Positions 1 to 62,511 of a stretch of 64,000 nucleotides of DNA are shown piece by piece. The stretch is taken from NCBI GenBank assembly GCA_963082975.1, contig OY720348.1, forward strand, positions 62,149,719-62,213,718, in the 5' to 3' direction. A program made the position numbers and the translations under genes. Under the pieces are notes generated by a model. The model was not told the DNA's origin and did no database searches. It worked only from the letters and a program-made list of their open reading frames with translations. The stretch is from Labia minor (Eukaryota > Arthropoda > Insecta > Dermaptera > Spongiphoridae). Numbering within the stretch: position 1 is the stretch's first letter; each line of letters opens with the position of its first letter.

Positions 1-21219
<21,219 letters not shown>

Positions 21220-25675: not shown

Positions 25676-26093
25676 GTAAGAGCATTCCTATGCCACCGAT
25701 GTAGAAATAATAAGTCAACCTATTTAGAAATAATGAGGATCAAGTCACAGTGACAATAAACAAACTTTTAATTGTCTAAATATAAATAACCAAAACTAAT
25801 GTTTAATATTTTAATGTTGTTATTATCATAGACTGAACTGTTGTTTCTTTTTATTTAGGTAAATATTATAATAAACTAATGTATTAATTTTATATATAAT
25901 TTTAATAAAATAATAAAATCTCTTAAGCAACACACTGTGGATTTATTTAACAACATTATAGAACAACAGTTGAGTCTATTATAATAACATCATTAAAATA
26001 TTAAACAGTAGTTTTTTTGGTAACAATTAAAAGTATATTTATTGTCACTTTGACTTGATCCTCATTATTTCTAAATAGGTTGACTGCTCTTAC
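25676..26093. mobile_element. Foldback MITE with long inverted arms
   Basis: Left arm GTAAGAGCA.. and right arm ..TGCTCTTAC are complementary over more than 100 bases, sharing CAACCTATTTAGAAATAATG and AGGATCAAGT. The left arm carries an extra ~28-base insert after AGAGCA. The middle has no transposase. The target is A+T, so the target duplication cannot be fixed exactly. Confidence 0.75.
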
Positions 26094-26656: not shown

Positions 26657-27266
26657 TCATTTTTTATAAAATTCCATTATAATAAATTATTTTATAGTGT
26701 AAATATTAAATATTTATATTTTATATATATATTAAATATACCTGGCAATTTCTTCTCATTGTCAGATTCTCCGTCCACCATAATTACTTACTAATTCTTT
26801 TGTTCGAGTCACTTGTGCGTATATATAGAATGGGAAACAAAATAGGATGCTTATACTTGTACAATGACTTAATATATAATATAATTTACTAGTGTAAATA
26901 ATATGCCCTATAACAATTACACATTTTATTTATACAGATAAATTTAAATTTTTAAAGGAATACAATCATTTCTTTTGCACTAAACTAGCTAGTCTAGTTA
27001 GAAAATAATTATACAATCGCCTGTTGAAAGAGTTCGTTTTGAAGGGAGACAAGAGTATTCAAAGGTAATTTGAATAGGAAAAAAGATCAATAAGAGTATA
27101 TATCAATAAAATCTATTTTTCCCATTATAAAATATTATAAAATACAAACCAAAATTTTAAAACATAACAGGTTACAAAAATATTGACATTTTTTTTCCAA
27201 AAAGAAAAAATTTTTTTATATATATATATATATATTAAAGGCTTTTGACTTTTATATTTTAGATAG
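26657..27266. other. Spacer between hAT remnant and MDH1 3' end
   Basis: A+T-rich sequence without recognised genes. The part next to 27266 is the MDH1 3' UTR on the minus strand, and TA repeats lie at 27217-27235. Confidence 0.5.
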
Positions 27267-27269
27267 TCA
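27252..27269 (-). promoter_or_regulatory. MDH1: MDH1 stop read-through element with -SKI extension
   Basis: On the minus strand the MDH1 stop TGA (27267-27269) is followed by CTA TCT AAA ATA TAA. TGA CTA is the known leaky context used by mammalian MDH1 to make a peroxisomal isoform. Reading through adds one residue at the stop plus L-S-K-I, so the longer protein would end in -SKI, which fits the PTS1 pattern [SAC]-[KRH]-[LMI]. Use of this signal here is inferred. Confidence 0.65.
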
Positions 27270-30200
27270 ATCTTTACAAACATTAAAAGCTTCTTCTCGT
27301 TCTTCAAGTAATTCAGCTGTAGTTGTAGAAATCATTTTCTTGGAAAATTCGTTTATTGGTAAATTCTAAAAAGATTGAAAAATAAGAAATTAAATCATTA
27401 ATAGGATAAAAACCATTAGTACTAATATCTAATTTCACTAGACTTAAAATAATGTAAAAAAATATACCAAATCTATATGATAGGTACATGTTAAAATTTA
27501 TTTAAATTTACAATAACAAGCATTAAATGTACTTATAATATTTATTTTGTCTCAAAAGAATTTAAATTTTACTTAAAATGAATGATTTTAACCCAGATTA
27601 TACATTATTTGATTGTTTACATTCTTGATTAATCATTCTTGTTTTATAAATTTTGTTTGTTTGATTTTTTTGTAATTTAATAATCATATTAAGAATAGAA
27701 TCTATTTTCATCGTTAAAATAAAAACCATTTGTGATAATATAGGAAATTGAGAATAAATACATTTAACATTTACCTGAACTATTTTCCATTTTTTATTTT
27801 GGATAGTTACTGGAAAAGAGAAAATCACATTTTCTGGCACATCATAAGAACCATCGGACATAACACCCATGGAAACAAAGCAACCTGGTTTTGTGCCATG
27901 CCATAAATCGTGCATATGGTCACTGGCTGCTTTGGCAGCAGACATTGCAGATGACATTTTACGGGCAGCAATTACTGCAGCACCTCTCTTCTGTACAGTC
28001 TGAAAAGATTTCAAAAAAAAAAAATATTTTAGAAAACAACTTTGAGATTGTCTTAAAAGTTTATTTTTATTGATTATAATTCTATTAATATCATCCTCAT
28101 GACAATATTTAATAAATTATAAACAATTTTTTTTAATATAAATAGTATGAAAAAGAAAATGAATTACTAACCGAAACGAATTCTTCTGTTCTCCATTTTT
28201 CATCCTTAATTAAATCAGCAACATTTTGACCTTTGACTCGTGAATGAAAACAATCTGGAAATTGGGTTGATGAGTGATTTCCCCAAATTATTACATTGTT
28301 TACTTCCCCGACGGATACGCCAAGTTTCTGGGCAATTTGAGCTTGTGCTCGATTTTGATCAAGCCTTGTCATAGCACTAAAATTTTCTTTAGGAATCGAA
28401 GGTGCATATTTGGCACAAACTAATGCATTCGTATTGGCTGGATTTCCCACTACTAAAACTTTAACATCTTTTTTGGCATATTTATCGAGGGCTTGTCCTT
28501 GGACCTTAAATATTTTAACATTAGCAGATAAAAGATCTTTTCTTTCCATTCCTTCTTTACGAGGCATTGAACCAACGAGGAAGGCTGCATCGACACCTTT
28601 AAATGCTATTTCAGGGTCGGCAGTTGCAACAATTTCACTGATAAGTGGAAGGGCGCAGTCCGTTAATTCCATAACGACACTCTCTAATACTCCCATCATA
28701 GGTGGAATATCCAAAAGGAGTAATACAAGTTGTTGATCGCGGCCGAAAACATCACCTTTCGCAATTTGATAAAGAAGAGAATATGCAATTTGACCAGCAG
28801 CTCCAGTAATACAAACACGAATGGGAGCCTGAAATGATAAAAATTATGATAAAATGTTCGAATTTAATTTATTTTTTGGATTTTTAAAAAAAAAAATAAC
28901 AAAACTAACTTAAATATTTCTCAAATAGATTAATAATAAGTTGCAATTAGCTGGAGTGTCTCCACTCGACTATCTCGCAATTTGAATTGGATTAAATAAC
29001 ATAATATATTATATTTAAATTAAATTTAATTAATTATAAATTATAAATAATAAATATTAAACCAGCGCATGTTTGGTTTTTTATTGATGGCACCACGTCA
29101 CATGTTGGCGGGTGAGAATTGCAGTGTTAAAAAATTAATTCTGGTAATTTCAGCGAATCAATCAAGCTGAAATTCTATATATAGCAGTTTTATACAATTA
29201 TTAATCATGTGAAAAATTATCAAACATATATCTTTATTTTTACGGTCAAAAAAAATCAAAACGTAGGTAATGACCCTCTTCCGGTTGAGCTACATTTCTC
29301 AAAAGTTGATAGAAAACTACAAATTTTGAATAATGCCCATGAACCAAATTTCATCATTCTAGCTCAAACCGTTTTTGCATAATCTTGGTTACATACATAC
29401 ACACACACAGACATTTTTCTCAACCTTAGTGAAAATGATTCAGGAACCTTTAAAACGTATAAAAACATCAAAATCTCGACATCGAAAATTTTCGTGATCG
29501 CAATACTATCTCTTACGAGATAGTAAAAATTGACATTTTTCACAATAAATATATAAAAATATATAATTACATACATATAAAATATAATTTTTATCAAGAA
29601 ATTTTTTATGGTATAAAAAAACATTGAATAAAATAGTGAAATTTAAGAATTATTAAATAATTAAAAATAATTCGAACCAATTAATTTTTTTATATATTAA
29701 ATAATAATCTTTTGCATTTATTAAGATTATGTTTAATTAAATGAATTTCTTGAATATGGTTATTAACCATGACAAAGTTTTACAGTTAAAATAAAATCAA
29801 TTGTTTTAAACTCTCTTGAATGTTAAAGAATACTTATATAACTATTATTTATTAAAAAAATTAGGAAATATTAAATAATATTAAAATAGTTAATTACATT
29901 GACTTTTAAGTAGTTGAAAAATTGATAAAAAAAAACAAATAATTTATCGTCTTATTAGATAATAAAATGTATAACTTTTATCTTATGATTAATTCTGAAG
30001 GACAAATTTATTGAAGGCATTTTATCATCATAAAACATTCTATTTAGGGAATTATAATAAAAAAATCTCAATTATAATTTTTCACGTTTTTTTAATAAAA
30101 TTTAATTTCATTTGAATTTATGATTTGGTTTCTTTATTTAAATTGACATTGAGTTTCATTTTATTAGTATGACAGGCAGTTTCCATATTACATAAGAAAT

Positions 30201-30487
30201 TTTCAAGTATCCTTAATTTGTAAAATACTACTTATTATTCATATTAAAAAAATATATTTTCATAGTGTGAGTTCATTTAATTAATTCGTTAATTTATATA
30301 AATTTGACATATTTTTATAGTATTCTAAATAAATTTAAAAAAAAATCCGAATTGTTCTTTAATAATAATTCAATAAATATATATTATTTGAGAAAATAAA
30401 ATAAAAAAACAAAAAACAAACAAGAAATACTTAATTGTAAGGTATTAAAGAGTAAATAAATTGAATTGAGCTTGGAACTCTTACCAT
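27267..30487 (-). CDS. MDH1: Cytosolic malate dehydrogenase (MDH1)
   Basis: Interconverts malate and oxaloacetate with NAD in the cytosol, serving the malate-aspartate shuttle. Minus-strand exons: 30485-30487 (ATG only, at the end of exon 1), 28172-28828, 27775-27999, 27267-27365. Joins are all phase 0 and give 327 residues (human MDH1 334). Visible motifs: NAD-binding [13 protein letters not shown] near the N-terminus; the substrate-arginine loop [35 protein letters not shown]; catalytic histidine in [13 protein letters not shown]. The C-terminal helix ends [14 protein letters not shown]. The A-P-I-R-V start directly after Met, and the GAAGQ motif, mark the cytosolic rather than the mitochondrial form. 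There is no transit peptide. Stop is TGA with CTA after it (see read-through element). The gene looks intact. Confidence 0.96.
28829..30484 (-). other. MDH1: MDH1 intron 1 with transposon-derived repeats
   Basis: The intron holds an inverted copy of the 15240-15345 repeat (28940-29035) and a minus-strand partial copy of repeat B (29255-29480, see 48115). The rest is A+T-rich with no further gene. Confidence 0.6.
29255..29480 (-). repeat. Partial copy of dispersed repeat B
   Basis: TCAAAACGTAGGTAATGACC, AAAGTTGATAGAAAACTAC and TTTCTCAACCTTAGTGAAAA are the complement of the second half of repeat B at 48115-48633. This copy is clearly more diverged than those in the tandem array. Confidence 0.7.
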
Positions 30488-35543: not shown

Positions 35544-37465
35544 TTTAAAAGTGATGATTTGTTTCATATTAAGCATTTGATTTCAATTTAAAATTTTTAA
35601 TTTCAGAGTCGTCTCCAACAGATTGCTCAACGAGAAGGGTTACAAGCGGATCTTGCTTCTCTTGATATTCTTGTTTCTCGTGCTCATACAGATATCCGAT
35701 CTTGTCTAACTGCAATGCAATGGTGTTGGGCTCGAGGTCAACGTTTAGCTATATCCGATGCGCTTCTTGCTTCTGTTGGGAATAGTGGTTCAAATAAAGG
35801 ACTCTTTGCTGTTTGGCAAGAAATATTTCATGTAAATTTTAACATCCTATCATTTTATTTAAATTGTTTTCTTTTTATTGGATTTATGGAAATTATCTAT
35901 TTCGAGTGTATCAACGTAAATTTTTTCACTGACAGAGTTAAATTTCTTTTTTAATAGAAAAAAAGACAAAAAATATCTTCATATATTCGTGATACTAATT
36001 TACAAGATCCAGAAGATGGAGAATGTCTTGCTAAAGTTATAAAAAATTCTCCAACGGAAGAAAATAATCGTTATAATAGTGTTTTACGATCTGTTCAAAT
36101 GTTTGGAGATTATGAACGCCTTGCTATGGTATACTTTTTATTATAATCAAAAAAAAACATCATTGAATAATATGAATATATATTAAATATATTTCTCTTT
36201 AACTTAGGGCGTTTTTGAAAACTTTCTCTGGTTAAATCGCCGCCAAACAGATTTTCACTCTATTACTAGTGGATTGGAATGTTTTACTTGGTTTGATCAA
36301 TTACAAACACATTTAAATATTTATAGGTAATTTGTTATATTATATATAGTATAAATTGTAAACAATTAATGTTACTTATGTTTTTTCAGGAATTATGTTA
36401 TATTTCCATATCAATCTTATTGTTTTCTTCAGTGGCATCTTCATTTTGGTGATATTCATTGGCCTAAGATAGTTTATCCTAGAACAATTTACGATGTGAA
36501 ATCCAAAGAAACTCGTAATAAACAAACGGTTAAAGAACTTATAAAACATCTTGAACCTTTTAATCAAATAACAACAAATTATAGCTCATTTTTACTAGAA
36601 ATTCTCCCCTATTTAAATTATATTATTGCTCCCCCGTTACGAACATTAAATCCACAATTATATAATCAAACTGAAAGAGATATTCTAACACAGTTAGTAA
36701 ATATTATGATGAAATACCAATTAACATATATTTATCAGCAAAATGAAGATGGATCACAACAATATGTATTAGACCCTAATATTTCCTCATTAGTATTTAT
36801 GAAAGATAGTCAGATACCCTTGGAAGAATATTCGCAACATTTGAGACAAATAATTGCTCATGAAATTTCTACACAAAATATTCGAATTCATTCAAAATAT
36901 GTGCCTAAATTGTCTCAAAGAGAAAAACATGAGGAGAAATTAAATGAAAATCAGACAAAACCTGAACTAAAATTAAAGGTAAATATCATTCGAATATATT
37001 TTAGCAAAATATTAATTAATTTAAAACCTTTTAAAAAATTTTCAAATATATAAAATTTAATTCATATATATTATAATCCGTTAACACCTGTTCATACAAT
37101 TATCTCAAGCAGTGTATAAATTTCACTTATAGATAAAAGATTATAGTTAAATTTTTTCGTGTTATTGATAATAGAAACATTTAAAAATATTTTATAATCT
37201 TCTTAATATATTTTTTTAATATTTTTGAGTGATTAATTCGATTCATTAATATTAAATATTTTTATTTATATAGTTTAAGTAATCATTTTTTTTACAGCCC
37301 CTGCCCAAACCAAACAAACAATATTTTATACGTGATATAAAAAAAAATAAGAAGAATGATAATTCCTCTGAAGTTAAAATTCAATTTAAATCAGGAGTAA
37401 TTTTCAAATATCGGGAAGAACAATTAAGTGGTTTAAAGAAACCAGTACGTTTATGTGATCTTTAA
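33289..37465 (+). CDS. CHTF18: CHTF18, large subunit of the CTF18-RFC clamp loader
   Basis: AAA+ ATPase that, with RFC2-5, DSCC1 and CHTF8, loads PCNA in the nucleus and supports sister-chromatid cohesion. Exons: 33289-33888, 33958-34056, 34152-34302, 34436-34617, 34732-34902, 35002-35121, 35607-35831, 35958-36128, 36208-36326, 36390-36978, 37298-37465; 864 residues (human about 975). Order of parts: acidic/basic N-terminus, RFC box [18 protein letters not shown], Walker [13 protein letters not shown] (34504 on), [11 protein letters not shown], Walker [11 protein letters not shown], sensor-1 [22 protein letters not shown] collar and C-terminal region with [20 protein letters not shown] and PNISSLVF. 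It ends KKPVRLCDL. The ATG follows an acceptor-like TTTTTAG at 33286, so an upstream noncoding exon is likely. The acceptor at 34434-34435 lacks a good pyrimidine tract but is the only in-frame choice I found. Confidence 0.94.
35508..35542. repeat. (CA)n microsatellite in CHTF18 intron
   Basis: An uninterrupted CA dinucleotide run in the intron before the exon at 35607. Confidence 0.95.
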
Positions 37466-44099: not shown

Positions 44100-46412
44100 A
44101 TTTAATATATATAAATTATTCTATTTCACCATTCAGCATCTTTTCTTTTTCTATAATTTATATTTATTAAATTTATTAAAAATATTAATTATAGTATAAT
44201 TTTAATTTTCAAGTAAAATTTTCTTTCATTATAGCTTATAAATTTTTTAGATGAACCTATTTCATATAAAATCTTTAAGGATATCCATCAAATTATAAAT
44301 AAATAAAAAAAACAAGTTTTCACGTTTAATTATTTTTTTATTGTGTCAATTGTGCTTAATAATTTATTCTTTTTCCCTAAGTCAGGTCGGAAAGTAGTAG
44401 GTGCCAGGGGCACTAATGATGAAACTTAAAACTTAATTTTGTAATCTGATCTGTACGTAAGGCATAAATGGCATAAATATTATTACAAAAATAAAATTAA
44501 CTTGTTTTGTGTGTGGCACACTTAATGTGTATTTAACAGAATGCAGTAGTATTAATGATCTGTTTTGTATCACACCAATGCATTTGGGCCGCTACCTCAG
44601 GCAAAGTGAATCGAAAGAATTTAATTTAATGCTAAAAAACATAACACGGAAACAGAATTTAAAATAAAATATAATTTACAAAGATCAACCTATTTTTCAA
44701 GACTTTTATTTCAACCTAAACCAAATATTATATTCTATTATTATAAGAAGAAATGATTGAGGAGTAATTAGATTCAATTTCATTTCTATTCAGATTTCTC
44801 TTCATATGTCCTATAGACTATAGATAATGGAAATACTTGTTATCTTGTTATCGGTGTTGTTAACGAAAACTAAAACATTCATGTATTGGTAGACAACCAA
44901 ATAATGACATACGATACCAACAAAAGTATCGATATCGGTATCGGATGAGCATCAAAAGATAGAGGCTATGACTAAAAACCTCGCCAGATTTTTTTAGTCA
45001 AAGTTGTTCATTGTTATACGCTTTTTATTAACTTCACTTTTCTGTCTGTCTTTCTGTCATGTTCAAAATTTGTAATTGGATTTTAACCCAACTTCTAGTT
45101 GAGCGATTTCGCTCAAATTTGAAACGTATATTGAAAGTCGATGACACTACAATAATCAAATAGAAATATTTTGACATTTTCAAAAATACGAATTTTTAAA
45201 ATTTGTGAATTAAAATAAAAAAAAAATTATATTAAACAAAATTTAATTAAATTCCAATTCATTTTAATAAAATTATAACTATACAAATATATAAAATGAT
45301 TAATAAAATGAATAATATTATATAAATAATTAATTTTTCTTAATCATAAATATTTTTATATAACTTATAAATTATAAATTTATAATTTTGTAATAATAAA
45401 AAAATATAAAAAACTAAAAACTTCAAAATAAATTAATAAATCACATTTTTAATATACACACGCTTTTAATCAAAAATGCCCTTAAAAAAATAGAAAATAA
45501 AATATTAATTAAACCTTGAATATTACCCTTTACATATGTCCAACAAAAAGCGTGCGGCGCATATAATAATAGTAAATTCTTTACCTATGTTCTACTTATA
45601 TTCATATGCACCCAGGCTTTTTTGTTGGGCATTTGTAAAGGATAATATTCAAGATTTAATTAATATTTTATTTTCTATTTTTTAGGGCATTTTGATTAAA
45701 AAGCGTGTATATTAAAAAGGTTTTTTATTAATTTATTTTTTGAGTGTATTATTCGATACTTTTGTACCGATGCCGGTATCATATCAGTAGTATTAGATCA
45801 TATAACAACTAAATAAACTGTTAAGTATGGTTCCATACACCGTGATCAATTAGACTGTGTACCAATACCTTGATCATTTCACCTACCCCAAAAAAAAACA
45901 AATATTAATTTTACTGACTAACTTGAATTAATTAACATAAAATTACAAAAAAAAGAGATTAATTTAATTATCTCATTAATAAATTTTTCATCATTTTATT
46001 GAAATATTCTTTTTCAATATATAAATTATAAAAAGAATAGAATATAAATAATATATAAGATTATAAATAATATATAAGATTATAAATAATATTTTATAAC
46101 ATAAATCACATTGAACGATATCACAGCATATCATTAAAATTTCAAATGAAACTTGTAATTGTAAAGTTGTCAGATCTATAAATAAAGAAAATTATTATGC
46201 AATCAATAATTTGATTCAATCAAATCTAATCTTACATTTTTAATATTTTTTTATAGAAACTAATATATTAATTTCAATCAATGTTAATTATATAATTACT
46301 TTAATTTTTTGTATGACTCATATCAACACATACATTCAATTAAGCTTTATTTACCTGATTTTTTAAATTTCACAATATATTTAACATATATATATATATA
46401 TATTAATATTCC
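44100..46412. other. Repeat-rich spacer
   Basis: Mostly A+T-rich. At 45040-45130 is a CTGTCTGTCTTTCTGTC tract next to TTGAGCGATTTCGCTCAAAT, a combination common at ends of arthropod dispersed repeats. A foldback element lies at 45424-45745 and a short (ATAATATATAAGATTATAA)n tandem at 46045-46090. Confidence 0.45.
45424..45745. mobile_element. Foldback MITE
   Basis: Inverted arms of about 120 bases: AATATACACACGCTTTTAAT, AATGCCCTTAAAAAAATAG and CCAACAAAAAGC on the left, with their complements on the right. A short central region separates them. No coding capacity. Confidence 0.75.
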
Positions 46413-46522: not shown

Positions 46523-47151
46523 AATAAGTTGACCTGTGACAAGGTCCGAACCGACCGATGGTTTGAAATAAATTAATTTCCAGCTACAGAAACAATTTCA
46601 AATAATTTTAATATATCTATTAATGTAATAAAAAACAGATAGGCATACATAAATAATAAATATAAACATTTTTAATTTTATTTTATTTATAATATATATG
46701 CAAGACCAGGCTGTGACGTCATGAATGACTGGATGACTTCATATAATTTTAAATCAAGAAAAAACTAATAAATATGATTTTTCTCGAGGATAAAACCAAT
46801 ACAAAGTGCATGATTCGTGGTGATATATAAAAAAATCTCCTTTGGTGTGAAAATAACCCTTTCCTTCCTATCGTCGATCGCTAATACTACCACTTCCGGT
46901 TTCCGGAATTGCACCAAAAGTTGATCAATTCATCCCACTGATGCATTAAGTAAATATACCAAATTTCATCAAAATCGGTTGAGCCGTTCAGGCTGTACAC
47001 ATCTATACGGACGGACAGACGGACAGACATACATCATGCTAAAAATACTTTTTTCTGTTTAGAAAATGCATGATTCGTGGAGATATGTAAAAATCTCCAC
47101 ATGTGAAATTTGGTGTGAAAACAATACCTCCCTTACTATCGTCGGTCGGTA
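46523..47151 (+). repeat. Dispersed repeat A, copy 1 (array left edge)
   Basis: Runs from AATAAGTTGACCTGTG to ATCGTCGGTCGGTA. It has ACCGACCG near the left end and its complement at the right end, a TGACGTCA-type pair, the tract GGACGGACAGACGGACAGAC, and two related halves each with TGCATGATTCGTGG. Further copies begin each unit; single copies are at 59102-59732, 59745-60392 and inverted at 61726-62350. No coding capacity. Family not recognised. Confidence 0.8.
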
Positions 47152-47180
47152 ATTAACGAACACAAAAAAAGAAATTCTAA

Positions 47181-47533
47181 GGCCCGATTCACACACAAGT
47201 GGCGTATGGCACTGGCGTGGTTCTGGCGTGGAACAGGTTTGTTAATGTAATTGCATTAGCTTATGACTCAATACCCACAGATATGGCGTGTTGGAGGAGT
47301 GGAAAATGGCACGAAGACCACTCCACTCCGACGCCACCGGTGGCTCGTAGGACTGGCACTCCACTTCTAGACCATTTCATTATTCATTTGGAGTGGTCTT
47401 CGTGCCATTTTCCACGCCTCCAACACGCCATATCTGTGGGTATTGAGTCATAAGCTAATGCAATTACATTAACAAACCTGTTCCACGCCAGAACCACGCC
47501 AGTGCCATACGCCACTTGTGTGTGAATCGGGCC
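47181..47533. mobile_element. Harbinger-like foldback MITE (five copies in array)
   Basis: Ends GGCCCGATTCACACA and its complement, flanked by TAA on both sides (47178-47180, 47534-47536), as expected of PIF/Harbinger insertions. Arms of about 145 bp are nearly complementary, with a central unique part including CCGGTGGCTCGTAGG. Copies in later units: 49697-50049, 52213-52565, 54729-55081, 57245-57597. No transposase. Confidence 0.75.
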
Positions 47534-48114
47534 TAACAGTATATTTAAGTGGGAGTTGTTGGGACATGAAAAAGAACGGGAACGCGTTCCGGTTCTGAAA
47601 AAAGGTAAGGGAACGTCGTTCCCCCGCGTTCCCCTCCCAATACACCAATGTATATTCCAAGATTTTATTTCTTTAAATGAGATAGTCCGATAGTCTTTTC
47701 TGATTTAATGATAGGTTTAAATAAAATCTTTCAATTCACCTTAATAAATCAATTGTGGTAAGATTGGATTAAAAAATCAACAATATATACGCCCATAATT
47801 TTGAAAGTGATCTAAATCATATATTTCTTGTTTCGAGATATTTAATGAATTACATTTGAATAAAAAATATTTTTACATTATACGACATTTTAATTTATAA
47901 TTTTCTTAGTTTTGATTAATTGAAATTTATTATGAATATGAAATTTCGTGTCAATTTCACACGAAAATGTTTTTAAAGCTTGAATTATATATAACTTAGA
48001 TCGTTTTCCAAATTAACTGAACGCCCTATATAAATACTTAAAGCAATAAAGAACTATGAGTTTTATTTGAAACAATAACTTTTTAATGAAATAATTTATA
48101 TGTACATTTATTAA

Positions 48115-48633
48115 TTACTTGTAAAAAGTAATCCATTTTTATCATTTCCAGTTTTTAAGATTCTCAAAATGTTCTTGAAAAACTGGAGAGATGTATGGTG
48201 GTAAATACATAATATCTTTATGTTTTTCTTCCGTTACTCTTCTAGTAGTGGTGTATTATGGAAGTAATTTAATATTTCCGTTCATTTTTGGTCCTCCTCT
48301 TTTAGGTGATACATGAAATTTGGAATCATTTCGTTGAAATAAAATCCGGCTGCGATATTTGTATTTTTCGATTTATGCTCAGGATTGTATAAGTAATTTG
48401 CTTTTATACTATCTCGCCAGAGATTTTATGTTTTTATATGCTTTGAAGGTCCCTGAGTCATTTTCACTAAGGTTGAGAAAAATGTCTGTGTATGTGTGTA
48501 TGTAGACAAGATTACACACAAACAGTTTGAGCTAGTATTATTAAATTTGTCATTATTCAAAATTCGTAGTTTTCTATCAACTTTTGAGAAAGGTAGCACA
48601 ATCGGAAGAGGGTCATTACCTACCACGTTTTGA
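48115..48633 (-). repeat. Dispersed repeat B, with a short coding-like stretch
   Basis: From TTACTTGTAAAAAGTAATCC to CCACGTTTTGA; repeated in all five units, at 61201-61721 and partly at 29255-29480. On the minus strand a stretch reads EEKHKDIMYLPPYISPVF, then QEHFENLKNWK-stop. Upstream in the 61-kb copy is PKRGRPKMN, an AT-hook-like motif. It looks like the C-terminal remnant of some protein, possibly a transposase. I cannot assign a family. Confidence 0.5.
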
Positions 48634-51600
48634 CTACTTTTCCTCTAAACTAACTGTAAAAATAACACACATTATTTACAAATGTACCAATACTAGTATC
48701 TGCAGGTTCATTTTTGACGATATTGTAAAAATTGCATTGAATAAAATTAATTTAAAATAATGTGGTGTGAAATAACTGATAAACTCATTTAATTTAAAAA
48801 TTTTGACTTAAACCACTTCCATTATTATGGGCACATATATATTTAGAAGTTAAGGGAATATTTTTAAAAATAATTAAAAGAATTTTCTTCAAAATAATGA
48901 TGTTAACTTTAATCTACAACATTCTAAATTCAAAATCTATTTGGGAGAAGGGGTTAATAATTTATATTTAGTCCCTTTCTGACAGCTTTAAGTTTTTTTT
49001 TTAATTAAACTCAATAGCTCAACCCAAAAATGAAAGAAATAAGTTGACCTGTGGCCAGGTCCGAACCGACCGACGGTTTGAAATAAATTAATTTCCAGCT
49101 ACAGAAACAATTTCAAATAATTTTAATATATCTATTAATGTAATAAAAAACAGATATGGAAACATAAATAATAAATATAAACATTTTTAATTTTATTTTA
49201 TTTATAATATATATGCAAGACCAGGCTGTGACGTTATGAATGGCTGGATGACGTCATATAATTTTAAATCAAGAAAAAAACTAATAAATATGATTTTTCT
49301 CGAGGATAAAACCAATACAAAGTGCATGATTCGTGGTGATATATAAAAAAATCTCCTTTGGTGTGAAAATAACCCTTCCTTTCCTATCGTCGATCGCTAA
49401 TACTACCACTTCCGGTTTCCGGAATTGCACCAAAAGTTGATCAATTCATCCCACTGATGCATTAAGTAAATATACCAAATTTCATCAAAATCGGTTGAGC
49501 CGTTCAGGCTGTACACATCTATACGGACGGACAGACGGACAGACATACATCATGCTAAAAATACTTTTTTCTGTTTAGAAAATGCATGATTCGTGGAGAT
49601 ATGTAAAAATCTCCACATGTGAAATTTGGTGTGAAAACAATACCTCCCTTACTATCGTCGGTCGGTAATTAACGAACACAAAAAAAGAAATTCTAAGGCC
49701 CGATTCACACACAAGTGGCGTATGGCACTGGCGTGGTTCTGGCGTGGAACAGGTTTGTTAATGTAATTGCATTAGCTTATGACTCAATACCCACAGATAT
49801 GGCGTGTTGGAGGAGTGGAAAATGGCACGAAGACCACTCCACTCCGACGCCACCGGTGGCTCGTAGGACTGGCACTCCACTTCTAGACCATTTCATTATT
49901 CATTTGGAGTGGTCTTCGTGCCATTTTCCACGCCTCCAACACGCCATATCTGTGGGTATTGAGTCATAAGCTAATGCAATTACATTAACAAACCTGTTCC
50001 ACGCCAGAACCACGCCAGTGCCATACGCCACTTGTGTGTGAATCGGGCCTAACAGTATATTTAAGTGGGAGTTGTTGGGACATGAAAAAGAACGGGAACG
50101 CGTTCCGGTTCTGAAAAAAGGTAAGGGAACGTCGTTCCCCCGCGTTCCCCTCCCAATACACCAATGTATATTCCAAGATTTTATTTCTTTAAATGAGATA
50201 GTCCGATAGTCTTTTCTGATTTAATGATAGGTTTAAATAAAATCTTTCAATTCACCTTAATAAATCAATTGTGGTAAGATTGGATTAAAAAATCAACAAT
50301 ATATACGCCCATAATTTTGAAAGTGATCTAAATCATATATTTCTTGTTTCGAGATATTTAATGAATTACATTTGAATAAAAAATATTTTTACATTATACG
50401 ACATTTTAATTTATAATTTTCTTAGTTTTGATTAATTGAAATTTATTATGAATATGAAATTTCGTGTCAATTTCACACGAAAATGTTTTTAAAGCTTGAA
50501 TTATATATAACTTAGATCGTTTTCCAAATTAACTGAACGCCCTATATAAATACTTAAAGCAATAAAGAACTATGAGTTTTATTTGAAACAATAACTTTTT
50601 AATGAAATAATTTATATGTACATTTATTAATTACTTGTAAAAAGTAATCCATTTTTATCATTTCCAGTTTTTAAGATTCTCAAAATGTTCTTGAAAAACT
50701 GGAGAGATGTATGGTGGTAAATACATAATATCTTTATGTTTTTCTTCCGTTACTCTTCTAGTAGTGGTGTATTATGGAAGTAATTTAATATTTCCGTTCA
50801 TTTTTGGTCCTCCTCTTTTAGGTGATACATGAAATTTGGAATCATTTCGTTGAAATAAAATCCGGCTGCGATATTTGTATTTTTCGATTTATGCTCAGGA
50901 TTGTATAAGTAATTTGCTTTTATACTATCTCGCCAGAGATTTTATGTTTTTATATGCTTTGAAGGTCCCTGAGTCATTTTCACTAAGGTTGAGAAAAATG
51001 TCTGTGTATGTGTGTATGTAGACAAGATTACACACAAACAGTTTGAGCTAGTATTATTAAATTTGTCATTATTCAAAATTCGTAGTTTTCTATCAACTTT
51101 TGAGAAAGGTAGCACAATCGGAAGAGGGTCATTACCTACCACGTTTTGACTACTTTTCCTCTAAACTAACTGTAAAAATAACACACATTATTTACAAATG
51201 TACCAATACTAGTATCTGCAGGTTCATTTTTGACGATATTGTAAAAATTGCATTGAATAAAATTAATTTAAAATAATGTGGTGTGAAATAACTGATAAAC
51301 TCATTTAATTTAAAAATTTTGACTTAAACCACTTCCATTATTATGGGCACATATATATTTAGAAGTTAAGGGAATATTTTTAAAAATAATTAAAAGAATT
51401 TTCTTCAAAATAATGATGTTAACTTTAATCTACAACATTCTAAATTCAAAATCTATTTGGGAGAAGGGGTTAATAATTTATATTTAGTCCCTTTCTGACA
51501 GCTTTAAGTTTTTTTTTTAATTAAACTCAATAGCTCAACCCAAAAATGAAAGAAATAAGTTGACCTGTGGCCAGGTCCGAACCGACCGACGGTTTGAAAT

Positions 51601-54600
51601 AAATTAATTTCCAGCTACAGAAACAATTTCAAATAATTTTAATATATCTATTAATGTAATAAAAAACAGATATGGAAACATAAATAATAAATATAAACAT
51701 TTTTAATTTTATTTTATTTATAATATATATGCAAGACCAGGCTGTGACGTTATGAATGGCTGGATGACGTCATATAATTTTAAATCAAGAAAAAAACTAA
51801 TAAATATGATTTTTCTCGAGGATAAAACCAATACAAAGTGCATGATTCGTGGTGATATATAAAAAAATCTCCTTTGGTGTGAAAATAACCCTTCCTTTCC
51901 TATCGTCGATCGCTAATACTACCACTTCCGGTTTCCGGAATTGCACCAAAAGTTGATCAATTCATCCCACTGATGCATTAAGTAAATATACCAAATTTCA
52001 TCAAAATCGGTTGAGCCGTTCAGGCTGTACACATCTATACGGACGGACAGACGGACAGACATACATCATGCTAAAAATACTTTTTTCTGTTTAGAAAATG
52101 CATGATTCGTGGAGATATGTAAAAATCTCCACATGTGAAATTTGGTGTGAAAACAATACCTCCCTTACTATCGTCGGTCGGTAATTAACGAACACAAAAA
52201 AAGAAATTCTAAGGCCCGATTCACACACAAGTGGCGTATGGCACTGGCGTGGTTCTGGCGTGGAACAGGTTTGTTAATGTAATTGCATTAGCTTATGACT
52301 CAATACCCACAGATATGGCGTGTTGGAGGAGTGGAAAATGGCACGAAGACCACTCCACTCCGACGCCACCGGTGGCTCGTAGGACTGGCACTCCACTTCT
52401 AGACCATTTCATTATTCATTTGGAGTGGTCTTCGTGCCATTTTCCACGCCTCCAACACGCCATATCTGTGGGTATTGAGTCATAAGCTAATGCAATTACA
52501 TTAACAAACCTGTTCCACGCCAGAACCACGCCAGTGCCATACGCCACTTGTGTGTGAATCGGGCCTAACAGTATATTTAAGTGGGAGTTGTTGGGACATG
52601 AAAAAGAACGGGAACGCGTTCCGGTTCTGAAAAAAGGTAAGGGAACGTCGTTCCCCCGCGTTCCCCTCCCAATACACCAATGTATATTCCAAGATTTTAT
52701 TTCTTTAAATGAGATAGTCCGATAGTCTTTTCTGATTTAATGATAGGTTTAAATAAAATCTTTCAATTCACCTTAATAAATCAATTGTGGTAAGATTGGA
52801 TTAAAAAATCAACAATATATACGCCCATAATTTTGAAAGTGATCTAAATCATATATTTCTTGTTTCGAGATATTTAATGAATTACATTTGAATAAAAAAT
52901 ATTTTTACATTATACGACATTTTAATTTATAATTTTCTTAGTTTTGATTAATTGAAATTTATTATGAATATGAAATTTCGTGTCAATTTCACACGAAAAT
53001 GTTTTTAAAGCTTGAATTATATATAACTTAGATCGTTTTCCAAATTAACTGAACGCCCTATATAAATACTTAAAGCAATAAAGAACTATGAGTTTTATTT
53101 GAAACAATAACTTTTTAATGAAATAATTTATATGTACATTTATTAATTACTTGTAAAAAGTAATCCATTTTTATCATTTCCAGTTTTTAAGATTCTCAAA
53201 ATGTTCTTGAAAAACTGGAGAGATGTATGGTGGTAAATACATAATATCTTTATGTTTTTCTTCCGTTACTCTTCTAGTAGTGGTGTATTATGGAAGTAAT
53301 TTAATATTTCCGTTCATTTTTGGTCCTCCTCTTTTAGGTGATACATGAAATTTGGAATCATTTCGTTGAAATAAAATCCGGCTGCGATATTTGTATTTTT
53401 CGATTTATGCTCAGGATTGTATAAGTAATTTGCTTTTATACTATCTCGCCAGAGATTTTATGTTTTTATATGCTTTGAAGGTCCCTGAGTCATTTTCACT
53501 AAGGTTGAGAAAAATGTCTGTGTATGTGTGTATGTAGACAAGATTACACACAAACAGTTTGAGCTAGTATTATTAAATTTGTCATTATTCAAAATTCGTA
53601 GTTTTCTATCAACTTTTGAGAAAGGTAGCACAATCGGAAGAGGGTCATTACCTACCACGTTTTGACTACTTTTCCTCTAAACTAACTGTAAAAATAACAC
53701 ACATTATTTACAAATGTACCAATACTAGTATCTGCAGGTTCATTTTTGACGATATTGTAAAAATTGCATTGAATAAAATTAATTTAAAATAATGTGGTGT
53801 GAAATAACTGATAAACTCATTTAATTTAAAAATTTTGACTTAAACCACTTCCATTATTATGGGCACATATATATTTAGAAGTTAAGGGAATATTTTTAAA
53901 AATAATTAAAAGAATTTTCTTCAAAATAATGATGTTAACTTTAATCTACAACATTCTAAATTCAAAATCTATTTGGGAGAAGGGGTTAATAATTTATATT
54001 TAGTCCCTTTCTGACAGCTTTAAGTTTTTTTTTTAATTAAACTCAATAGCTCAACCCAAAAATGAAAGAAATAAGTTGACCTGTGGCCAGGTCCGAACCG
54101 ACCGACGGTTTGAAATAAATTAATTTCCAGCTACAGAAACAATTTCAAATAATTTTAATATATCTATTAATGTAATAAAAAACAGATATGGAAACATAAA
54201 TAATAAATATAAACATTTTTAATTTTATTTTATTTATAATATATATGCAAGACCAGGCTGTGACGTTATGAATGGCTGGATGACGTCATATAATTTTAAA
54301 TCAAGAAAAAAACTAATAAATATGATTTTTCTCGAGGATAAAACCAATACAAAGTGCATGATTCGTGGTGATATATAAAAAAATCTCCTTTGGTGTGAAA
54401 ATAACCCTTCCTTTCCTATCGTCGATCGCTAATACTACCACTTCCGGTTTCCGGAATTGCACCAAAAGTTGATCAATTCATCCCACTGATGCATTAAGTA
54501 AATATACCAAATTTCATCAAAATCGGTTGAGCCGTTCAGGCTGTACACATCTATACGGACGGACAGACGGACAGACATACATCATGCTAAAAATACTTTT

Positions 54601-57600
54601 TTCTGTTTAGAAAATGCATGATTCGTGGAGATATGTAAAAATCTCCACATGTGAAATTTGGTGTGAAAACAATACCTCCCTTACTATCGTCGGTCGGTAA
54701 TTAACGAACACAAAAAAAGAAATTCTAAGGCCCGATTCACACACAAGTGGCGTATGGCACTGGCGTGGTTCTGGCGTGGAACAGGTTTGTTAATGTAATT
54801 GCATTAGCTTATGACTCAATACCCACAGATATGGCGTGTTGGAGGAGTGGAAAATGGCACGAAGACCACTCCACTCCGACGCCACCGGTGGCTCGTAGGA
54901 CTGGCACTCCACTTCTAGACCATTTCATTATTCATTTGGAGTGGTCTTCGTGCCATTTTCCACGCCTCCAACACGCCATATCTGTGGGTATTGAGTCATA
55001 AGCTAATGCAATTACATTAACAAACCTGTTCCACGCCAGAACCACGCCAGTGCCATACGCCACTTGTGTGTGAATCGGGCCTAACAGTATATTTAAGTGG
55101 GAGTTGTTGGGACATGAAAAAGAACGGGAACGCGTTCCGGTTCTGAAAAAAGGTAAGGGAACGTCGTTCCCCCGCGTTCCCCTCCCAATACACCAATGTA
55201 TATTCCAAGATTTTATTTCTTTAAATGAGATAGTCCGATAGTCTTTTCTGATTTAATGATAGGTTTAAATAAAATCTTTCAATTCACCTTAATAAATCAA
55301 TTGTGGTAAGATTGGATTAAAAAATCAACAATATATACGCCCATAATTTTGAAAGTGATCTAAATCATATATTTCTTGTTTCGAGATATTTAATGAATTA
55401 CATTTGAATAAAAAATATTTTTACATTATACGACATTTTAATTTATAATTTTCTTAGTTTTGATTAATTGAAATTTATTATGAATATGAAATTTCGTGTC
55501 AATTTCACACGAAAATGTTTTTAAAGCTTGAATTATATATAACTTAGATCGTTTTCCAAATTAACTGAACGCCCTATATAAATACTTAAAGCAATAAAGA
55601 ACTATGAGTTTTATTTGAAACAATAACTTTTTAATGAAATAATTTATATGTACATTTATTAATTACTTGTAAAAAGTAATCCATTTTTATCATTTCCAGT
55701 TTTTAAGATTCTCAAAATGTTCTTGAAAAACTGGAGAGATGTATGGTGGTAAATACATAATATCTTTATGTTTTTCTTCCGTTACTCTTCTAGTAGTGGT
55801 GTATTATGGAAGTAATTTAATATTTCCGTTCATTTTTGGTCCTCCTCTTTTAGGTGATACATGAAATTTGGAATCATTTCGTTGAAATAAAATCCGGCTG
55901 CGATATTTGTATTTTTCGATTTATGCTCAGGATTGTATAAGTAATTTGCTTTTATACTATCTCGCCAGAGATTTTATGTTTTTATATGCTTTGAAGGTCC
56001 CTGAGTCATTTTCACTAAGGTTGAGAAAAATGTCTGTGTATGTGTGTATGTAGACAAGATTACACACAAACAGTTTGAGCTAGTATTATTAAATTTGTCA
56101 TTATTCAAAATTCGTAGTTTTCTATCAACTTTTGAGAAAGGTAGCACAATCGGAAGAGGGTCATTACCTACCACGTTTTGACTACTTTTCCTCTAAACTA
56201 ACTGTAAAAATAACACACATTATTTACAAATGTACCAATACTAGTATCTGCAGGTTCATTTTTGACGATATTGTAAAAATTGCATTGAATAAAATTAATT
56301 TAAAATAATGTGGTGTGAAATAACTGATAAACTCATTTAATTTAAAAATTTTGACTTAAACCACTTCCATTATTATGGGCACATATATATTTAGAAGTTA
56401 AGGGAATATTTTTAAAAATAATTAAAAGAATTTTCTTCAAAATAATGATGTTAACTTTAATCTACAACATTCTAAATTCAAAATCTATTTGGGAGAAGGG
56501 GTTAATAATTTATATTTAGTCCCTTTCTGACAGCTTTAAGTTTTTTTTTTAATTAAACTCAATAGCTCAACCCAAAAATGAAAGAAATAAGTTGACCTGT
56601 GGCCAGGTCCGAACCGACCGACGGTTTGAAATAAATTAATTTCCAGCTACAGAAACAATTTCAAATAATTTTAATATATCTATTAATGTAATAAAAAACA
56701 GATATGGAAACATAAATAATAAATATAAACATTTTTAATTTTATTTTATTTATAATATATATGCAAGACCAGGCTGTGACGTTATGAATGGCTGGATGAC
56801 GTCATATAATTTTAAATCAAGAAAAAAACTAATAAATATGATTTTTCTCGAGGATAAAACCAATACAAAGTGCATGATTCGTGGTGATATATAAAAAAAT
56901 CTCCTTTGGTGTGAAAATAACCCTTCCTTTCCTATCGTCGATCGCTAATACTACCACTTCCGGTTTCCGGAATTGCACCAAAAGTTGATCAATTCATCCC
57001 ACTGATGCATTAAGTAAATATACCAAATTTCATCAAAATCGGTTGAGCCGTTCAGGCTGTACACATCTATACGGACGGACAGACGGACAGACATACATCA
57101 TGCTAAAAATACTTTTTTCTGTTTAGAAAATGCATGATTCGTGGAGATATGTAAAAATCTCCACATGTGAAATTTGGTGTGAAAACAATACCTCCCTTAC
57201 TATCGTCGGTCGGTAATTAACGAACACAAAAAAAGAAATTCTAAGGCCCGATTCACACACAAGTGGCGTATGGCACTGGCGTGGTTCTGGCGTGGAACAG
57301 GTTTGTTAATGTAATTGCATTAGCTTATGACTCAATACCCACAGATATGGCGTGTTGGAGGAGTGGAAAATGGCACGAAGACCACTCCACTCCGACGCCA
57401 CCGGTGGCTCGTAGGACTGGCACTCCACTTCTAGACCATTTCATTATTCATTTGGAGTGGTCTTCGTGCCATTTTCCACGCCTCCAACACGCCATATCTG
57501 TGGGTATTGAGTCATAAGCTAATGCAATTACATTAACAAACCTGTTCCACGCCAGAACCACGCCAGTGCCATACGCCACTTGTGTGTGAATCGGGCCTAA

Positions 57601-59101
57601 CAGTATATTTAAGTGGGAGTTGTTGGGACATGAAAAAGAACGGGAACGCGTTCCGGTTCTGAAAAAAGGTAAGGGAACGTCGTTCCCCCGCGTTCCCCTC
57701 CCAATACACCAATGTATATTCCAAGATTTTATTTCTTTAAATGAGATAGTCCGATAGTCTTTTCTGATTTAATGATAGGTTTAAATAAAATCTTTCAATT
57801 CACCTTAATAAATCAATTGTGGTAAGATTGGATTAAAAAATCAACAATATATACGCCCATAATTTTGAAAGTGATCTAAATCATATATTTCTTGTTTCGA
57901 GATATTTAATGAATTACATTTGAATAAAAAATATTTTTACATTATACGACATTTTAATTTATAATTTTCTTAGTTTTGATTAATTGAAATTTATTATGAA
58001 TATGAAATTTCGTGTCAATTTCACACGAAAATGTTTTTAAAGCTTGAATTATATATAACTTAGATCGTTTTCCAAATTAACTGAACGCCCTATATAAATA
58101 CTTAAAGCAATAAAGAACTATGAGTTTTATTTGAAACAATAACTTTTTAATGAAATAATTTATATGTACATTTATTAATTACTTGTAAAAAGTAATCCAT
58201 TTTTATCATTTCCAGTTTTTAAGATTCTCAAAATGTTCTTGAAAAACTGGAGAGATGTATGGTGGTAAATACATAATATCTTTATGTTTTTCTTCCGTTA
58301 CTCTTCTAGTAGTGGTGTATTATGGAAGTAATTTAATATTTCCGTTCATTTTTGGTCCTCCTCTTTTAGGTGATACATGAAATTTGGAATCATTTCGTTG
58401 AAATAAAATCCGGCTGCGATATTTGTATTTTTCGATTTATGCTCAGGATTGTATAAGTAATTTGCTTTTATACTATCTCGCCAGAGATTTTATGTTTTTA
58501 TATGCTTTGAAGGTCCCTGAGTCATTTTCACTAAGGTTGAGAAAAATGTCTGTGTATGTGTGTATGTAGACAAGATTACACACAAACAGTTTGAGCTAGT
58601 ATTATTAAATTTGTCATTATTCAAAATTCGTAGTTTTCTATCAACTTTTGAGAAAGGTAGCACAATCGGAAGAGGGTCATTACCTACCACGTTTTGACTA
58701 CTTTTCCTCTAAACTAACTGTAAAAATAACACACATTATTTACAAATGTACCAATACTAGTATCTGCAGGTTCATTTTTGACGATATTGTAAAAATTGCA
58801 TTGAATAAAATTAATTTAAAATAATGTGGTGTGAAATAACTGATAAACTCATTTAATTTAAAAATTTTGACTTAAACCACTTCCATTATTATGGGCACAT
58901 ATATATTTAGAAGTTAAGGGAATATTTTTAAAAATAATTAAAAGAATTTTCTTCAAAATAATGATGTTAACTTTAATCTACAACATTCTAAATTCAAAAT
59001 CTATTTGGGAGAAGGGGTTAATAATTTATATTTAGTCCCTTTCTGACAGCTTTAAGTTTTTTTTTTAATTAAACTCAATAGCTCAACCCAAAAATGAAAG
59101 A

Positions 59102-59732
59102 AATAAGTTGACCTGTGGCCAGGTCCGAACCGACCGACGGTTTGAAATAAATTAATTTCCAGCTACAGAAACAATTTCAAATAATTTTAATATATCTATT
59201 AATGTAATAAAAAACAGATATGGAAACATAAATAATAAATATAAACATTTTTAATTTTATTTTATTTATAATATATATGCAAGACCAGGCTGTGACGTTA
59301 TGAATGGCTGGATGACGTCATATAATTTTAAATCAAGAAAAAAACTAATAAATATGATTTTTCTCGAGGATAAAACCAATACAAAGTGCATGATTCGTGG
59401 TGATATATAAAAAAATCTCCTTTGGTGTGAAAATAACCCTTCCTTTCCTATCGTCGATCGCTAATACTACCACTTCCGGTTTCCGGAATTGCACCAAAAG
59501 TTGATCAATTCATCCCACTGATGTATTAAGTAAATATACCAAATTTCATCAAAATCGGTTGAGCCGTTCAGGCTGTACACATCTATACGGACGGACAGAC
59601 GGACGGACAGACATCATGCTAAAAATACTTTTTTCTGTTTAGAAAATGCATGATTCGTGGAGATATGTAAAAATCTCCACATGTGAAATTTGGTGTGAAA
59701 ACAATACCTCCCTTACTATCGTCGGTCGGTAA
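59102..59732 (+). repeat. Repeat A, terminal copy closing the tandem array
   Basis: The left part matches the A copies of units 2-5, but the right part carries its own variants (GATGTATTAAG; GGACGGACAGACATCATG). It is directly followed by another A copy. Confidence 0.85.
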
Positions 59733-59744
59733 AAACAATAAAAT

Positions 59745-60392
59745 AATAAGTTGACTTGTGGCCAGGTCCGAACCGACCGACGGTTTGAAAAATTAATTTC
59801 CAGCTACAGAAGCAATTTCAAATAATTTTAATATATCTATTAATGTAATAAAAAACAGATATTAATATAACATAAATATTTTTACCGACCGACGATAGTA
59901 AGGGAGGTATTGTTAATTTTATTTTATTTATAATATATATGTAAGACCAGGCTGTGACGTCCTGAATGGCTGGATGACGTCATATAATTTTAAATCAAGA
60001 AAAAACTAATAAATATTTTTTTTCTCGAGGATAAAACCAATACAAAGTGCATGATTCGTGGTGATATATAAAAAAATCTCCTCATGTGAAATTTGGTGTG
60101 AAAATAACCCTTCCCTTCCTATTGTCGATCGCTAATACTACCACTTCCGGTTTCCGGAATTGCACCAAAAGTTGATCAATTCATCCCACTGATGCATTAA
60201 GTAAATATACCAAATTTCATCAAAATCGGTTGAGCCGTTCAGGCTGTACACATCTATACGGACGGACAGACATCATGCTAAAAATACTTTTTTCTGTTAA
60301 GAAAATGCATGATTCGTGGAGATATGTAAAAATCTCCACATGTGAAATTTGGTGTGAAAACAATACCTCCCTTACTATCGTCGGTCGGTAAA
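59745..60392 (+). repeat. Repeat A, diverged copy
   Basis: Starts AATAAGTTGACTTGTGGCC and ends CGTCGGTCGGTA. It retains CTCCTCATGTGAAATTTGG where the array copies have a 15-16-base deletion. At 59884-59913 it carries an inverted piece of A's own right end (ACCGACCGACGATAGTAAGG). Confidence 0.8.
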
Positions 60393-61200
60393 AATACAAT
60401 AATTGCAACCCACACTTTATCAAGTCATTTCAATTTTTCAGATCTCCCTCAACTTCAAAAATCCTCTGCTATGTTGTCTCTTACATTTTATTCAAACAGT
60501 AAAAAGTAAAAAAAATAAAATGAAAATAATTGATAAATATAACATCAAAACAACATTAAATAATGTCAACATGCCGAAAATACTTCCAATGAATTTTTTA
60601 CTGGACCAAGGAAGAATGTTAACGAGTCGAGGGAAGTTATTCACATCTATTACTAGAGAATACAATTTTTAAATCAGCTTTAAATTGGAGTAAATATTAT
60701 TTGAAATGAAAATCGTTTTTTATTTTATTTTACAAATTACATTTAAAATCTGTCAATGTTTTTTTGAAATAAATAAATTGATAAAAATAAAATCAAATTA
60801 TCGAGTATATATAAATAAGTTCAAAATATTAAAAAATAAAAATTCTCTCACTGAATTTTTTTAGAGAATATAATAGAAAAAATATATATCTTAATACGTA
60901 TATTAGATAATTAGATATTAATTAATAATACAATTTAAAATAAAATTATAAAAATATGAGCTCACACACTTTTTGTTATTGGTTGATATATTTTTTAATA
61001 TTTTTAACTCTATCACATCACAAACCTTATATTTATTCAGATCTATTACTAGAGAATAAAATTTTTAAATTAACTTTCAATTGGGGTAAATTATTTGAAA
61101 TAAAATTAAAACATTTTTTTTTAGAATCAAAATTTTAAATTAACTTTCAATTGGGGTAAATTATATGAAATAAAATTAAAACATTTGTTTACTTGTAAAA
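60393..61200. other. A+T-rich spacer with reversed minisatellite units
   Basis: Contains CTTTCAATTGGGGTAAATTA units near 61080 and 61150, the inverse of the minisatellite at 62512-63019, plus a degenerate unit near 60680. No gene is recognised. Confidence 0.55.
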
Positions 61201-61721: not shown

Positions 61722-61725
61722 TTTT

Positions 61726-62350
61726 TACCGACCGACGATAGTAAGGGAGGTATTGTTTTCACACCAAATTTCACATGTGGAGATTTTTACATATCTCCAC
61801 GAATCATGCATTTTCTAAACAGAAAAAAGTATTTTTAGCATGATGTCTGTCCGTCCGTCCGTCCGTATAGATGTGTACAGCCTGAACGGCTCAACCGATT
61901 TTGATGAAATTTGGTATATTTACTTAATGCATCAGTGGGATGAATTGATCAACTTTTGGTGCAATTCCGGAAACCGGAAGTGGTAGTATTAGCGATCGAC
62001 GATAGGAAGGAAAGGGTTATTTTCACACCAAAGGAGATTTTTTTATATATCACCACGAATCATGCACTTTGTATTGGTTTTATCCTCGAGAAAAATCATA
62101 TTTATTAGTTTTTTCTTGATTTAAAATTATATGACGTCATAGAGCTATTCATGACGTCACAGCCTGGTCTTGCATATATATTATAAATAAAATAAAATTA
62201 AAAATGTTTATATTTATTATTTATGTATGCCTATCTGTTTTTTATTACATTAATAGATATATTAAAATTATTTGAAATTGTTTCTGTAGCTGGAAATTAA
62301 TTTATTTCAAACCGTCGGTCGGTTCGGACCTGGCCACAGGTCAACTTATT
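61726..62350 (-). repeat. Repeat A, inverted copy
   Basis: Reads TACCGACCGACGATAG to CCACAGGTCAACTTATT, the complement of the array A repeats. With 59745-60392 it forms an inverted pair about 1.3 kb apart. It shares GGCATAC-type variants with copy 1 of the array. Confidence 0.85.
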
Positions 62351-62511
62351 TTACTTTAGTACATTTGTAAATGTGTTTTAAAAAAAAAATTATATTTCGT
62401 TGATTTTAGTTTTGTATAAATTTAAGATTTATCATTTAAAAAAATACATAGTAAAATGATCATAACAAACTAATAAAATAATTTTGTTTTCAACAAACAA
62501 ATAAAAAAAAA

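What the first reader, a model, noticed from the sequence alone, without database searches (positions are those of the whole stretch)
27252..27269. MDH1 stop codon TGA-CTA leads into a 5-residue extension ending -SKI
Seen: in frame after MDH1 the minus strand has TGA CTA TCT AAA ATA TAA, so read-through gives X-L-S-K-I. Known: mammalian MDH1 uses a leaky UGA CUA stop to make a peroxisome-targeted isoform, and PTS1 signals fit [SAC]-[KRH]-[LMI]. Inferred: this arthropod makes peroxisomal MDH the same way but with an extension only five residues long. Both the leaky context and a plausible targeting tripeptide occurring by chance together is unlikely in a stretch this short.
Basis: partly seen in the sequence, partly recalled or inferred. 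Interest (0 to 1): 0.85.

Follow-up and report, generated by a model that had tools for sequence, protein, structure and literature searches.

The report
Leaky MDH1 stop hiding peroxisome tag
In this animal gene for a cytosolic metabolic enzyme, a weak stop signal is followed by only four more codons that end in a peroxisome address tag, so a few copies of the enzyme are probably sent to peroxisomes, as already known for human MDH1.

Summary
On the minus strand, TGA CTA TCT AAA ATA TAA (27269-27252) directly follows an intact spliced cytosolic malate dehydrogenase CDS; read-through gives ...NVCKD-X-LSKI. Of 2287 TGA triplets with a closed downstream frame (both strands), 26 have CTA next, 6 end in [SAC][KRH][LMI], and only this one has both: about 3e-5 to 6e-5 per TGA stop. 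It falls on the gene whose vertebrate orthologs use UGA CUA read-through to add a PTS1. SKI is a working PTS1 in mammalian HAO1 (cited in PMC7108859), and UGA-CUA alone supports 1.5% read-through in human cells (PMC4132726). The best reading is a peroxisomal MDH1x made by read-through: a new, very short member of a known kind, since Stiebler 2014 already reports the MDH1 cryptic PTS1 as conserved in animals back to Hydra. Against it: U before and after the motif, and SKI outside two published tag patterns. Conservation in arthropods, the decisive test, could not be run. Read-through and import are inferred; that the host is an arthropod was not verified.

The parts
28172..28828 (-). MDH1 coding exon 2 ([17 protein letters not shown] ... 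EEFVS)
   Evidence: splice and translation; homology; flanked by AG acceptor and GT donor
27775..27999 (-). MDH1 coding exon 3 ([14 protein letters not shown] ... WKIVQ)
27270..27365 (-). MDH1 last coding exon up to the stop ([10 protein letters not shown] ... AFNVCKD)
30485..30487 (-). Candidate first coding exon: ATG directly followed by a GTAAGAGT donor, giving M-APIRV; not proven by any transcript
   Evidence: scan for short ATG exons with a donor, one of 2 candidates listed
27267..27269 (-). First stop codon TGA, proposed leaky stop; the base before it is T
27264..27266 (-). CTA directly after the stop (read-through context UGA CUA; the next base is U, not G)
   Evidence: context from PMC4207609 and PMC4132726
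27255..27263 (-). TCT AAA ATA = S-K-I, PTS1-type C-terminal tripeptide of the extended protein
   Evidence: SKI as PTS1 of HAO1 cited in PMC7108859
27252..27254 (-). Second stop codon TAA ending the extension X-L-S-K-I
26925..26930 (-). AATAAA, candidate poly(A) signal, so both stops probably lie on the same mRNA
   Evidence: only match to A[AT]TAAA in 27251-26700; no transcript data

Best explanation
The stop codon of this cytosolic MDH1 gene is a programmed leaky UGA. Most ribosomes stop there and make cytosolic MDH1. A small share (inferred, of the order of 1 to a few percent) insert an amino acid at UGA and add L-S-K-I before the TAA. The exposed C-terminal -SKI is then read by Pex5 as a PTS1, and the extended subunit, possibly with unextended partners, enters peroxisomes, where it helps re-oxidise NADH. 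Shown here: the gene, the frame, the context, the tripeptide and the low chance level. Inferred from other species: leakiness, import and metabolic role.
For: Intact MDH1 in frame up to the stop (67% identical to the aligned cytosolic MDH chain of 7rm9). The only one of 2287 TGA in the window to combine CTA (or even CT) with a [SAC][KRH][LMI] end; 3e-5 to 6e-5 per stop. Same gene and same UGA CUA core as human MDH1, whose cryptic PTS1 is reported as conserved in animals back to Hydra (PMC4207609) and throughout vertebrates (PMC5133446). UGA CU(A) is leaky in fungi and human cells; UGA-CUA alone gives 1.5%, and changing CAAUUA to CUAUUA after UGA in the OPRL1 context restored wild-type read-through, so U at the fourth place can work (PMC4132726). 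HAO1 needs its C-terminal SKI for peroxisomal targeting (PMC7108859 citing Recalcati 2001). Short extensions have precedent: human LDHB 7 and CACNA2D4 5 residues, as I read the table of PMC4999894 (its column heads were not in view; the 7 is also).
Against: No orthologous arthropod sequence, footprint or peptide could be examined. The base after CUA is U; G there was of particular importance in earlier work. The base before the stop is U, which is associated with lower read-through in mouse and human cells (PMC12233894), and the upstream context has more effect than the downstream one beyond the motif. SKI is outside the Stiebler expression and the consensus in PMC3781343, and was called weak for ACOT6. 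With I removed from the tag definition this site is not a hit at all. No downstream RNA structure supports read-through (z -0.43), although human MDH1 does not need its 50 bases downstream of the context. The extension is 5 residues against 19 in human MDH1, so only context and tag type are shared. Fly ribosome profiling (PMC3840789) has no word beginning malate or mdh in the held main text and tested PTS1 only in extensions of 12 aa or more.
Confidence: 0.8

Rival explanations
1. Coincidence: the stop is an ordinary UGA in an AT-rich 3' UTR that happens to be followed by CTA TCT AAA ATA TAA; any read-through is noise.
For: No comparative or functional data. U on both sides of the motif is not the strongest context. 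Over the whole window about 0.07 such double hits are expected, and TGACTA is not enriched.
Against: The hit falls on the one gene where it is predicted: 3e-5 to 6e-5 per TGA stop, or about 0.3-1.0% for the tag alone once CTA is granted, for the two definitions that include SKI (ratios).
Confidence: 0.13
2. Read-through happens but its product is not peroxisomal: -LSKI is too weak or too close to the folded C-terminal helix to be bound by Pex5, and the role, if any, is something else such as stability.
For: The extension is only five residues; SKI was labelled weak for ACOT6; the PTS1 can be defined as a dodecamer (PMC3781343).
Against: SKI is the working signal of HAO1; LDHBx works with seven residues.
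Confidence: 0.06
3. The TGA is not a terminator read through by near-cognate tRNA but a recoded codon (selenocysteine) or an assembly error.
For: None found.
Against: No Rfam family reaches its gathering score in the window (that Rfam holds SECIS models is recalled); the best solved cytosolic MDHs align to query residue 322-323 of 326, so a stop is expected there.
Confidence: 0.01

Closest known systems
Vertebrate MDH1x (UGA CUA G read-through adding a hidden PTS1, SRL or CRL)
   Same: Same gene, UGA CUA stop context, in-frame extension ending in a PTS1-type tripeptide
   Different: Human extension 19 residues ending CRL; here 5 residues ending SKI, and U instead of G after CUA
Mammalian LDHBx
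   Same: UGA CUA read-through adding a very short PTS1 extension (7 residues) to a cytosolic NAD dehydrogenase
   Different: Different gene; two residues longer; conserved in mammals only
Fly CG1969 / mosquito AGAP010769 read-through PTS1; fly NADP-IDH UGA CU PTS1
   Same: Insect genes with a predicted PTS1 in a read-through extension
   Different: Other enzymes; the CG1969 extension region spans 39 bases in the table of PMC3840789
Mammalian HAO1
   Same: C-terminal SKI as peroxisomal signal
   Different: SKI is in the regular ORF, no read-through

Membership tests
MDH1x-type functional read-through (MDH1 with hidden PTS1) | Host gene is cytosolic MDH1 | tested here: met
   TIGR01758 equivalog above cut-off; 67% identity to an aligned cytosolic MDH
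MDH1x-type functional read-through (MDH1 with hidden PTS1) | UGA stop followed directly by CU(A) | tested here: met
   TGA CTA at 27269-27264
MDH1x-type functional read-through (MDH1 with hidden PTS1) | Extended motif UGA CUA G of the strongest contexts | tested here: not met
   Next base is T; not a strict requirement: UGA CU(A) is the core and CUAUUA worked in the OPRL1 reporter
MDH1x-type functional read-through (MDH1 with hidden PTS1) | In-frame extension ends in a PTS1 tripeptide | tested here: met
   SKI fits [SAC][KRH][LMI] and is a used PTS1 in HAO1; it is not in the Stiebler 2014 expression nor in the consensus of PMC3781343. No PTS1 predictor was run
MDH1x-type functional read-through (MDH1 with hidden PTS1) | Stop context and PTS1 conserved among relatives | not tested
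   No arthropod ortholog reached; the genome search unanswered in 13 tries
MDH1x-type functional read-through (MDH1 with hidden PTS1) | Measured read-through and peroxisomal import | not testable with these tools
   Needs footprints, peptides or reporters

The most novel reading that the evidence does not exclude
This is one of a class of minimal read-through tags: UGA CUA followed by only a PTS1 tripeptide (X-L-S-K-I), in which stop context, address signal and final stop together span 18 bases. Such tags would have escaped insect screens, because Dunn et al. tested PTS1 only on extensions of 12 aa or more, and Jungreis et al. [quoted passage not shown] Peroxisomal MDH by read-through would then be ancestral to animals, with the extension length free to drift.
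Probability: 0.35. Interest if true: 0.6.

Novelty: new member of a known kind. Interest (0 to 1): 0.42.

Why it matters
If right, it adds a very compact case to the evidence that animals supply peroxisomes with NADH-oxidising MDH by stop codon read-through rather than by a separate gene, with a shorter extension and a different tag from those of human MDH1. It also suggests that screens with a length cut-off of 10-12 codons miss the most compact cases, which is directly testable in any set of insect genomes.

Tried and rejected
Relatives: full-length MDH1 against viral contigs found 0 relatives among 11 pattern matches. The alignment A1 (window MDH1 plus one PDB cytosolic MDH) against genome contigs kept 80 of 524 relatives; the 80 titles are bacterial, best-segment identity at most 58%, so no use for the 3' end; the other 444 were not shown. 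Against viral contigs it gave 1 relative among 30 pattern matches, an uninterrupted match at 52% of unknown origin, not pursued. RNA structure downstream of the stop: not more stable than shuffles (z -0.43, 61 of 200 shuffles fold as well). Rfam on the window: 0 families at gathering score. tRNA scan: 0.

Literature: nine searches, several with capped lists (20 of 46, 20 of 56, 15 of 98, 15 of 32 and 15 of 397 papers shown). No listed title or abstract start was about MDH1 read-through in an insect or other arthropod. The species in Figure 4C of Stiebler 2014 could not be seen, so arthropods may already be among them. Papers were seen as passages found by search terms, except sections 7, 10 and 11 of PMC4207609, which were read whole. 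Recalcati 2001 itself was not read; it is known here from a citing sentence and its title in reference lists.

Nulls and a mended count: one search counted tag-like ends after TGA twice (12 printed); one search recounted 6, and the report uses 6. In one search the null built from the 400 bases after the MDH1 stop keeps the first base fixed as C, which inflates its CTA rate to 0.20; only tag rates and tag-given-CTA ratios are taken from it. The whole-strand joint rate of 6.1e-5 rests on about 12 hits in 198033 random draws. A PTS1 predictor could not be run.

Full report
What is there. The minus strand reads TGA CTA TCT AAA ATA TAA at 27269-27252. Splicing three exons with AG/GT borders (28828-28172, 27999-27775, 27365-27270) gives 326 residues of an intact cytosolic malate dehydrogenase ending ...[12 protein letters not shown], then stop, then LSKI, then stop. 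The protein passes the NCBIfam equivalog cut-off for eukaryotic cytosolic MDH (519.3 bits against 470.4). Its best five solved relatives are all named malate dehydrogenase, four of them cytoplasmic, and their alignments run to query residue 322-323 of 326, so the stop is where it should be. Identity to the aligned chain of 7rm9 is 67%. A first exon consisting of ATG and a GTAAGAGT donor at 30487 is a candidate only. AATAAA at 26930 suggests a 3' UTR of a little over 320 bases.

Chance. I took every TGA on both strands with a closed downstream frame, 2287 in all. CTA follows in 26, CT in 97; the downstream frame ends in [SAC][KRH][LMI] in 6. CTA or CT together with such an end occurs once, at the MDH1 stop (one search listed the same single site but printed 12 for the tag because of a double count). 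About 0.07 double hits (CTA plus tag) are expected in the whole window, so a hit somewhere would be mildly unusual, but at one named stop the probability is about 3.0e-5, or 3.9e-5 if the 2516-base tandem array is left out (1807 TGA). Given CTA, the tag alone has a chance of about 0.3-1.0% under the two definitions that include SKI (ratios). TGACTA itself is not enriched (26 against 26.7 expected).

Mechanism and its support. Stiebler et al. 2014 (PMC4207609; passages plus sections 7, 10 and 11; [quoted passage not shown] Hofhuis et al. 2016 (PMC5133446; passages) put MDH1 read-through at about 4%, name Arg and Trp as inserted residues, find no need for the 50 bases after the context, and report CRL in mammals and SRL in non-mammalian vertebrates (amphibia set apart in their discussion). 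Loughran et al. 2014 (PMC4132726; passages) give 1.5% for UGA-CUA alone and report that changing CAAUUA to CUAUUA after UGA restores wild-type read-through in the OPRL1 context, which speaks for tolerance of U in the place of the usual G, as here (TTGTAAAGAT TGA CTATCTAAAA). HAO1 requires its C-terminal SKI (PMC7108859, passage). Human extensions of 7 (LDHB) and 5 (CACNA2D4) residues appear in the table of PMC4999894, read without its column heads.

What speaks against, or is missing. The extension shares only context and tag type with vertebrate MDH1x, not length (5 against 19) or sequence. Stiebler et al. note that G after UGA CUA was of particular importance in other work; here it is U. The base before the stop is U, which goes with lower read-through in mouse and human cells (PMC12233894, passage), and the upstream context weighs more than the downstream one beyond the motif. 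SKI is outside one published search expression and one published consensus (PMC3781343), and was called a predicted weak PTS1 for ACOT6 (PMC8919083). The local RNA shows no unusual structure (z -0.43). No ortholog from a related animal was reached: the prokaryote collection kept 80 bacterial-titled records of 524, the viral collection gave none and then one uninterrupted match of unknown origin, and the own-genome search did not answer in 13 tries. There is no footprint, peptide or localisation evidence. Read-through and import in this species are therefore inferred.

Known or new. The mechanism and the gene are known, so this is a new member of a known kind. What would be new is the compactness: stop context, address tag and final stop fit in 18 bases. 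Insect screens were not built to see this. Dunn et al. 2013 ran the PTS1 predictor only on extensions of 12 aa or more (PMC3840789, passages). Jungreis et al. [quoted passage not shown] they also place abundant read-through in Pancrustacea. In nine literature searches, several with capped lists, no listed title or abstract start dealt with arthropod MDH1 read-through, but the species figure of Stiebler 2014 was not visible to me.

Verdict. Functional MDH1x read-through 0.80, coincidence 0.13, read-through without peroxisomal role 0.06, other 0.01. These are judgements resting on the low chance level and the strong prior from the vertebrate and Hydra cases.

Noticed in passing
46733-59759: Tandem array of a 2516-base unit, five full copies plus a part, 99.6% identical at that shift over the region, 68% A+T; each unit contains an internal inverted repeat (unit 448-802, 89%). 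Its period is above the limit of 500 of the tandem repeat finder. Real array or assembly artefact not decided.
   Followed up: partly
61053-61190 and 62502-63017: Arrays of a 70-base unit (2 and 7.4 copies), in opposite orientation to each other, on either side of partial copies of the 2516-base repeat, of which 61725-62352 is inverted.
   Followed up: partly
29263-29477: A piece 86% identical to part of the 2516-base repeat, in inverted orientation, lies upstream of MDH1 coding exon 2 (inside intron 1 if the candidate first exon is right).
   Followed up: no
20890-21219 (+): C-terminal end of a HECT-domain gene on the + strand, converging on MDH1 and ending in an ordinary TAA.
   Followed up: no
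35601-35954 (+): ORF with an RFC1-like AAA lid domain just below the curated cut-off (32.2 against 34.9 bits), perhaps a clamp-loader type gene.
   Followed up: no
25713-26085 and 45425-45739: Self-complementary palindromic stretches (77% and 84% to their own reverse complement).
   Followed up: no
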